Source of the DNA: Methylobacterium durans
Lineage (GTDB): Bacteria; Pseudomonadota; Alphaproteobacteria; Rhizobiales; Beijerinckiaceae
Assembly (NCBI RefSeq): GCF_003173715.1
Contig: NZ_CP029550.1
Coordinates: 2,170,001 to 2,234,000 of the forward strand
DNA: 64,000 nt
Direction of reading: 5' to 3'
Positions within the stretch are counted from its first letter, which is position 1. Each line of letters starts with the position of its first letter. Positions 28,042 to 28,359 of this stretch are shown here, piece after piece. Both the position numbers and the translations under genes were made by a program. Under the pieces are notes generated by a model. The model saw nothing but the letters and a program-made list of their open reading frames with translations, made no database searches and had not been told where the DNA came from.

Positions 28042-28359
28042 TGGCGTCCCCGGCAGGGCTCGAACCTGCGACCCCAGGTTTCATACCACCTCGGCTTTCG
28101 CCGCCGCCCGCGAGGGCGTTCGTGGCCTGGACTATCCCTTCGCCCTAGGCACCCCCGCGAGGGATGCCCTTAGGCGCCGCCCGTCTAGTCTCTACACCTT
28201 CCCGCCGGGCGAGCCGGCGGGCTTGGCTCGGGATCGGCAGGGCGCCTGCGCGCCGTGAGCTTTCCCCGAATTTGAGCGGATCCGTCGCGCGGTTTCCCGG
28301 CGCGACGCCCAATTTGGCCTTTAGGAAACCTGTGCTCTGTCCAGCTGAGCTACGGAGAC
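28042..28359 (-). tRNA. tRNA-Arg(CCU), interrupted by a group I intron
   Basis: The exons are 28323-28359 (37 nt) and 28042-28081 (40 nt including encoded CCA). Joined, they fold as a complete tRNA: acceptor stem GTCTCCG with CGGGGAC (one G-U pair), D stem GCTC/GAGC, anticodon stem CAGGT/ACCTG, loop TTCCTAA with anticodon CCU, and T arm GCAGG-TTCGAGC-CCTGC. The discriminator base is G. The intron splits the anticodon loop right after the third anticodon base. Without the intron the gene looks fully functional. The anticodon would read AGG codons. Confidence 0.95.
28082..28322 (-). ncRNA. group I intron (IC3-like) in the tRNA-Arg anticodon loop
   Basis: The 241-nt insert ends in G and the upstream exon ends in U, as in group I introns. 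Conserved core segments are AGAGACTAGACGG (28181-28193) and AAGGGATAGTCCA (28128-28140), which form P7 and the guanosine site, and a P2 hairpin with a GGGAAACC tip (28283-28307). GGG at 28308-28310 can pair with exon CCU, and the preceding AATT with exon AA. Several segments match the Azoarcus tRNA-Ile and Agrobacterium tRNA-Arg(CCU) introns as I remember them. It is too short to encode an endonuclease. Confidence 0.92.

What the first reader, a model, noticed from the sequence alone, without database searches (positions are those of the whole stretch)
28042..28359. tRNA-Arg(CCU) gene split by a 241-nt group I intron
Seen: two exons rejoin to a perfect tRNA with CCU anticodon, and the insert has group I core segments, a U at the 5' splice site and a terminal G. 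Known: group I introns occur in tRNA-Arg(CCU) of Agrobacterium and tRNA-Ile of Azoarcus. Inference: this is a self-splicing IC3-like intron without endonuclease. The AGG-reading tRNA depends on splicing, which could limit decoding of rare AGG codons.
Basis: partly seen in the sequence, partly recalled or inferred. Interest (0 to 1): 0.7.

Follow-up and report, generated by a model that had tools for sequence, protein, structure and literature searches.

The report
Self-splicing intron splitting a tRNA gene
In a Methylobacterium genome, the gene for one arginine transfer RNA is interrupted by a small RNA insert that very probably cuts itself out; inserts of this kind in this very gene are already known from related bacteria.

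Summary
On the minus strand a 77-nt tRNA-Arg(CCU) gene with encoded CCA (exons 28359-28323 and 28081-28042) is split by a 241-nt insert (28322-28082) directly after the anticodon; ARAGORN in intron mode returns exactly this. The insert folds as a P1-P9 group I intron of IC3 type; in 30 introns of the genus 93.4% of pair cells hold and covariation exceeds every shuffle. Rfam RF00028 alone is weak (24.8 bits, gathering 50), but introns in 4 of 20 loci scanned pass the cut-off, and the window-based model finds all four at 135-165 bits. The intron is in 64 of 65 Methylobacterium genomes searched; the exception has an intact tRNA-Arg(CCU) closed at the predicted junction. tRNA-Arg(CCU) introns are a known alphaproteobacterial family; the Bartonella member self-splices in vitro and splices in vivo (PMC7717549, passages). 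So: a new member of a known kind. The AGG-decoding idea is weakened, because the genome also has tRNA-Arg(UCU). Related introns sit in nine tRNA species, with guides that match each exon end.

The parts
28323..28359 (-). 5' exon of tRNA-Arg(CCU), 37 nt, ending in anticodon CCU
   Evidence: ARAGORN intron mode
28082..28322 (-). group I (IC3-type) intron, 241 nt, terminal G at 28082
28042..28081 (-). 3' exon of tRNA-Arg(CCU), 40 nt, with encoded CCA
28308..28310 (-). internal guide sequence GGG, pairs with exon CCU (28325-28323) to form P1 with a U-G wobble at the splice site
   Evidence: invariant in 30 of 30 aligned genus introns; guide matches exon end across host tRNAs
28283..28307 (-). P2 stem capped by GG-GAAA-CC (L2 GAAA tetraloop)
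   Evidence: 99.3% of cells paired, helix 1; GAAA in 30 of 30
28274..28279 (-). P3 5' strand CCGCUC (3' strand 28182-28177)
   Evidence: 100% paired; one pair changed on both sides in one sequence (G-C to A-U)
28264..28269 (-). P4 5' strand UCGGGG (3' strand UCCCGA 28233-28228)
   Evidence: invariant; aligned to RF00028
28186..28190 (-). P7 5' strand GACUA (3' strand UAGUC 28134-28130), pseudoknotted with P3; expected guanosine-binding site
   Evidence: invariant in 30 of 30; guanosine-site role from general knowledge
28141..28176 (-). P8 stem-loop
   Evidence: second pair of the basal stem is G-C in 5 and A-U in 24 of 30
28086..28125 (-). P9 with two branch hairpins; GAAA tetraloop at 28099-28096
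   Evidence: loop GAAA or GGAA in 30 of 30

Best explanation
A group I intron of the tRNA type (IC3), without an endonuclease gene, sits in the only tRNA-Arg(CCU) gene that I found in this Methylobacterium genome. Shown here: the exon-intron layout, the conserved P1-P9 architecture with covariation, the homologous family, the near-fixation in the genomes searched and one natural empty allele. Inferred from characterised relatives: the precursor folds so that exon CCU pairs with guide GGG. A guanosine bound at P7 attacks the U|A 5' splice site, the freed 5' exon attacks after the terminal G, and the ligated tRNA-Arg(CCU) plus a linear intron are released. Within the genus it seems mainly inherited with the host chromosome, and it has at least once been lost or replaced precisely.
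For: ARAGORN intron mode gives the exact gene. RF00028 aligns the P3-to-P7 region (model 50-157 of 253) at E 3.9e-4 in a 701-nt search. The 67-pair structure: 93.4% of cells paired vs 88.9% shuffled and 34-45% slid, 99 both-side changes vs 39.3, 0 of 500 shuffles as high. The model built on it has matches at E <= 0.001, most of them full-length, in 49 of 385 class genomes, 97 of 397 family genomes and 40 of 398 phylum genomes. RF00028 gathering is met by introns in 4 of 20 loci scanned (L031, L091, L095, L108), which that model matches at 153, 165, 160 and 135 bits. The empty site in G754 joins CCT directly to AAACC at the syntenic place. [quoted passage not shown] Intron and metK distances correlate (r 0.38, 2 of 5000 permutations as high, 18 genomes).
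Against: No RNA data for this species. Below Rfam gathering. Folding energy not exceptional. P4, P7 and P9 never vary in the 30 genus introns, so they give no covariation evidence there. The structure was written by hand from the window sequence, so the percentage paired leans towards it. 16 of 20 loci with such introns, the window's own among them, stay below RF00028 gathering.
Confidence: 0.95

Rival explanations
1. A degenerate, no longer splicing group I intron that leaves a tRNA-Arg(CCU) pseudogene, with AGG read by tRNA-Arg(UCU).
For: tRNA-Arg(UCU) is present, so loss might be tolerated; the Rfam score is low.
Against: Core helices P3, P4, P7, P9, the guide and the terminal G are intact and the exons form a complete tRNA. 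All 30 aligned introns (window plus 29 congeners) keep the core although loops have diverged, which a dead element would not be expected to do.
Confidence: 0.03
2. An intron whose splicing is regulated and that gates the supply of tRNA-Arg(CCU), retained for that reason.
For: Present in 64 of 65 genus genomes searched; AGG is rare (50 of 14,803 codons).
Against: One congener lacks it cleanly; tRNA-Arg(UCU) offers an alternative reader; no extra conserved domain is seen: the outer parts of P5, P6, P8 and P9 vary in sequence and length.
Confidence: 0.04
3. An intron removed by tRNA-splicing endonuclease, or an unrelated insertion.
For: The position beside the anticodon is where endonuclease-spliced introns also lie (PMC4033280, passage).
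Against: 241 nt with a full group I core and family-wide covariation; archaeal-type tRNA splicing is not a bacterial pathway (general knowledge).
Confidence: 0.01

Closest known systems
Alphaproteobacterial tRNA-Arg(CCU) group I introns (Agrobacterium; Bartonella bacilliformis BbgpI, PMC7717549)
   Same: Same host tRNA and group I stems P1-P9; BbgpI is called a member of this alphaproteobacterial family (passages read).
   Different: Another genus and a GC-rich sequence. I did not align the Bartonella or Agrobacterium sequences themselves; none was identified by name here.
Azoarcus BH72 pre-tRNA-Ile(CAU) intron (IC3, solved structure)
   Same: Same layout, with a GAAA-capped P2, a GAAA loop in P9, a 3-bp P1 with U-G at the splice site and a near-identical AGACUA core (Azoarcus details recalled, not compared here; its crystal structures are cited in PMC3984707, passage read).
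   Different: Different tRNA and guide (GUG for CAU, recalled; here GGG for CCU).
Cyanobacterial and plastid tRNA-Leu(UAA) and tRNA-fMet introns
   Same: Group I introns in tRNA genes at or beside the anticodon (PMC4033280, passage read).
   Different: Different host tRNAs and lineage; not compared by sequence here.
tRNA-Leu(UAA) introns in related families (for example L031, G059)
   Same: Matched by the window-based model at 153 bits; RF00028 62.4 bits, above gathering.
   Different: Exon end CUU and guide GAG instead of CCU and GGG.

Membership tests
Group I intron | P3-P8 and P4-P6 domains with P7 pseudoknotted to P3 | tested here: met
   P3, P4 and P7 each 100% paired in 30 of 30; P3 and P8 show both-side changes; RF00028 alignment.
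Group I intron | U at the 5' splice site paired with guide G (P1) and a terminal G | tested here: met
   Sequence; 30 of 30 aligned genus introns keep guide GGG and terminal G.
Group I intron | Score against the Rfam RF00028 covariance model | tested here: inconclusive
   24.8 bits, E 3.9e-4 in a 701-nt search, below gathering 50. Of 20 loci with introns of this family (window's own included), 14 match at E <= 0.1 and 4 exceed 50 bits; model R1 matches those 4 at 135-165 bits.
Group I intron | Guanosine-dependent self-splicing | not testable with these tools
   Self-splicing reported for the Bartonella relative only (PMC7717549, passages read).
IC3 subgroup (bacterial tRNA introns) | Compact intron with GNRA loops on P2 and P9 and no large P5abc or P7.1 domains | tested here: met
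   241 nt; L2 GAAA 30 of 30 and L9 GAAA or GGAA 30 of 30. That these features define IC3 is recalled, from no call.
Alphaproteobacterial tRNA-Arg(CCU) intron family | Group I intron in tRNA-Arg(CCU) directly after the anticodon, homologous to those of other alphaproteobacteria | tested here: met
   13 of 56 tree rows are tRNA-Arg(CCU) introns, 8 of them outside the genus.
Homing-endonuclease-carrying mobile intron | Intron-encoded endonuclease ORF | tested here: not met
   No ORF of 20 aa or more lies wholly inside the intron.

The most novel reading that the evidence does not exclude
The Methylobacterium intron is one resident branch of a single intron lineage in Pseudomonadota that has moved between at least nine tRNA species, exchanging two or three guide bases where the exon end demands it: Arg(CCU), Arg(UCU), Leu(UAA), Leu(CAA), Thr(GGU), Thr(CGU), Thr(UGU), Lys(UUU) and Lys(CUU). 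It did so without an endonuclease where I looked (the window), presumably by reverse splicing. In Methylobacterium it has become almost fixed (64 of 65 genomes searched), with a natural precise loss available as a ready-made control.
Probability: 0.5. Interest if true: 0.45.

Novelty: new member of a known kind. Interest (0 to 1): 0.25.

Why it matters
It is a sound but expected find: a tRNA gene that the default tRNA and Rfam scans here missed or misnamed is intact once spliced, in nearly every genome of the genus searched. The usable new points are a near-fixed endonuclease-free intron with one clean empty allele in the same genus, and a lineage whose guide sequence matches a changing tRNA target. 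Together they would let the cost of the intron and the route of its spread be tested directly.

Tried and rejected
Rfam at gathering over the window found nothing; the relaxed scan was needed. A single-sequence fold was not informative. Pairing of the 5' exon GGUUUCCU with GGGAAACC inside the intron looks like an 8-bp P1, but I rejected it: that GGGAAACC is the GAAA cap of P2, and P2 is conserved and co-varies at one pair.

The guide-exon control with wobbles allowed was weak: 66 of 66 own pairs against 1292 of 2808 cross-host pairs, and own pairing had been required when sites were chosen. With U-G at the splice site and Watson-Crick pairs at the next two positions it is 63 of 66 own, 341 of 2808 cross-host (several hosts share exon end CUU) and 51 of 2522 where the exon ends differ. 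Rows dropped before that count: 11 of 62 and 6 of 41 had no consistent site or a cut end; 14 rows with a shifted guide or 3' end were left out; the window's second appearance was left out; L103, L123, L215, L185 and L186 were left out as ambiguous; L034, L077 and L200 were set by hand to the CCU junction. Hosts of L102, L103, L108, L110, L115, L116, L118, L119, L123 and L125 were assigned by hand. The intron tree is poorly resolved (24 of 53 inner branches under 80, bootstrap not settled; 15 host changes counted on that tree, two rows of unknown host included). The first guide script ended in an error and was rewritten. The metK tree had no outgroup and held 36 of 61 loci; the rest lacked enough of the fragment.

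The RF00005 list of tRNAs in the own genome is incomplete: 43 tRNAs named, no Ile tRNA and no Ala(UGC) among them. 'No second CCU tRNA' therefore rests mainly on a pattern search with 0 hits, which covers only loops reading TTCCTAA. first listed these tRNAs mixed with those of other loci; one search repeats it for the own genome alone.

Paper searches. Searches (Methylobacterium, 3 papers listed; tRNALys and proteobacteria, 2 papers listed) showed no title on bacterial tRNA introns. The library lacks most subscription papers, so this is not proof of absence. Passages of PMC11782384 added nothing.

Full report
What is there. The window is part of a single-contig 6.79 Mb genome (G000:C1:2170001-2234000). 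The genus is Methylobacterium: the 14 named genome contigs stretches that match a pattern of the intron start are 13 Methylobacterium records and one Methylobacteriaceae MAG. The best match among 36 congeners searched, G021 (95% over the locus), lies on a contig of 19,531 bases, the length of the M. oxalidis record NZ_BJZU01000047.1. On the minus strand, exons 28359-28323 and 28081-28042 make a 77-base tRNA-Arg(CCU) with CCA, and a 241-nt insert lies right after the anticodon. ARAGORN without intron mode instead names a 'tRNA-???' made of the 3' exon and the intron end.

Structure. The Rfam model RF00028 aligns at 24.8 bits (gathering 50), model positions 50-157 of 253, E 3.9e-4 for a 701-nt search. 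I aligned 30 genus introns, the window's included, of 222-267 nt and wrote the group I structure by hand from the window sequence. Of 1955 cells 93.4% form standard pairs (shuffled 88.9%). 21 pairs have changes on both sides, against a shuffled mean of 13.7; 99 cells do, against 39.3; 0 of 500 shuffles reach either. Sliding partners by 1-3 columns drops pairing to 34-45%. Both-side changes sit in P2, P3, P8 and the outer stems of P5, P6, P8 and P9; P4, P7 and the base of P9 never vary. Guide GGG, the L2 GAAA loop and the terminal G are invariant in 30 of 30, and the P9 hairpin loop is GAAA or GGAA. No ORF of 20 aa or more lies wholly inside the intron.

Distribution. The DNA search found the intron in 37 of 37 genus genomes of its set, the window's included. 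The model R1 found it in 44 of 45 genus genomes of another draw (that listing is ordered by kinship and shows one same-genus miss). The union is 64 of 65. The miss, G754, holds an uninterrupted tRNA-Arg(CCU) in the same place beside metK. A metK-fragment tree of 36 rows (midpoint root, no outgroup) puts G754 beside two intron-bearing genomes (support 98/94), so its state is most simply derived. Its T-arm also differs from theirs: the sequence was in 1 of 216 loci, its own, and in 1 of 4 genomes searched, its own. Replacement by an intronless allele is thus as possible as precise loss. In 18 genomes intron distance follows metK distance (r 0.38, 2 of 5000 permutations as high), moderate support for inheritance with the chromosome. 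G029 carries a 318-nt version with a longer P6 region.

Relatives. R1 matched 49 of 385 genomes of the class, 97 of 397 of the family and 40 of 398 of the phylum. All 57 matches listed by the class search were fetched; from the family and phylum searches host tRNAs were examined for 40 matches, 20 of them from the 53 other-genus genomes of the family search. Host tRNAs were resolved for 51 of 62 matches in one set and 35 of 41 in the other, the window's own locus being in both. After hand checks the hosts include Arg(CCU), Leu(UAA), Leu(CAA), Thr(GGU), Thr(CGU), Thr(UGU), Lys(UUU), Lys(CUU) and Arg(UCU); Arg(UCU) rests on one intron, Thr(CGU) and Thr(UGU) on two each. Guide and exon end match: CCU-GGG, CUU-GAG, GGU-GCC, CGU-GCG, ACU-GGU; CUU-GAG serves several hosts. 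With U-G plus two Watson-Crick pairs, 63 of 66 own combinations pair against 51 of 2522 between introns whose exon ends differ and 341 of 2808 between different hosts. Own pairing was part of choosing sites, so only the contrast counts. The intron tree, poorly resolved, shows 15 host changes. Introns in 4 of 20 loci scanned pass RF00028 gathering and R1 matches them at 135-165 bits, which ties the window intron to accepted group I introns; the other 16, the window among them, do not pass.

Decoding. Besides the split CCU gene the genome has tRNA-Arg(ACG), (CCG) and (UCU) among 43 tRNAs named (list incomplete). A search for an uninterrupted CCU loop gave 0 hits. AGG is 50 of 14,803 codons in 43 predicted window genes, and 24 of them use it. 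The CCU tRNA therefore needs splicing, but AGG need not depend on it alone.

Neighbours. PAP2, DUF3280, HTH, S-adenosylmethionine synthetase and Methyltransf_4 (trmB-like) proteins lie on the same strand downstream; an M48 peptidase lies on the other strand, upstream; 7 of 9 neighbours scanned have a Pfam match. None of these points to mobility.

Literature. [quoted passage not shown] It cites Paquin, Heinfling and Shub 1999 (J Bacteriol), whose title speaks of sporadic distribution, horizontal transmission and transposition; that paper is not held and I saw only its title. [quoted passage not shown] PMC3984707 (passages): review.

Verdict. Confirmed, ordinary in kind, well placed in a known family. 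Interest lies in the genus-wide residence with one empty allele and in the guide-host matching of the wider lineage, not in the window intron itself.

Noticed in passing
L156:1501-1577 (G754): The one genus genome of 65 searched without the intron: an intact tRNA-Arg(CCU) closed at the predicted junction, with a differing T-arm; a natural empty allele.
   Followed up: partly
L031, L081, L098, L105, L106, L109, L120, L193, L212: Related introns in tRNA-Leu(UAA), Thr(GGU), Lys(CUU), Lys(UUU), Leu(CAA), Thr(CGU), Arg(UCU) and Thr(UGU), with guides that pair with each exon end; some genomes carry two or three.
   Followed up: partly
L189, L190, L192: Related introns outside the class whose 3' side starts CATAATCC, perhaps a CAU-anticodon tRNA; splice sites not resolved.
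   Followed up: no
window 28042-28117: ARAGORN without introns calls a tRNA-??? here, so the true tRNA-Arg(CCU) may be missed in default annotation.
   Followed up: yes
L032 (G029): A 318-nt version of the intron with a longer, repetitive P6 region.
   Followed up: no
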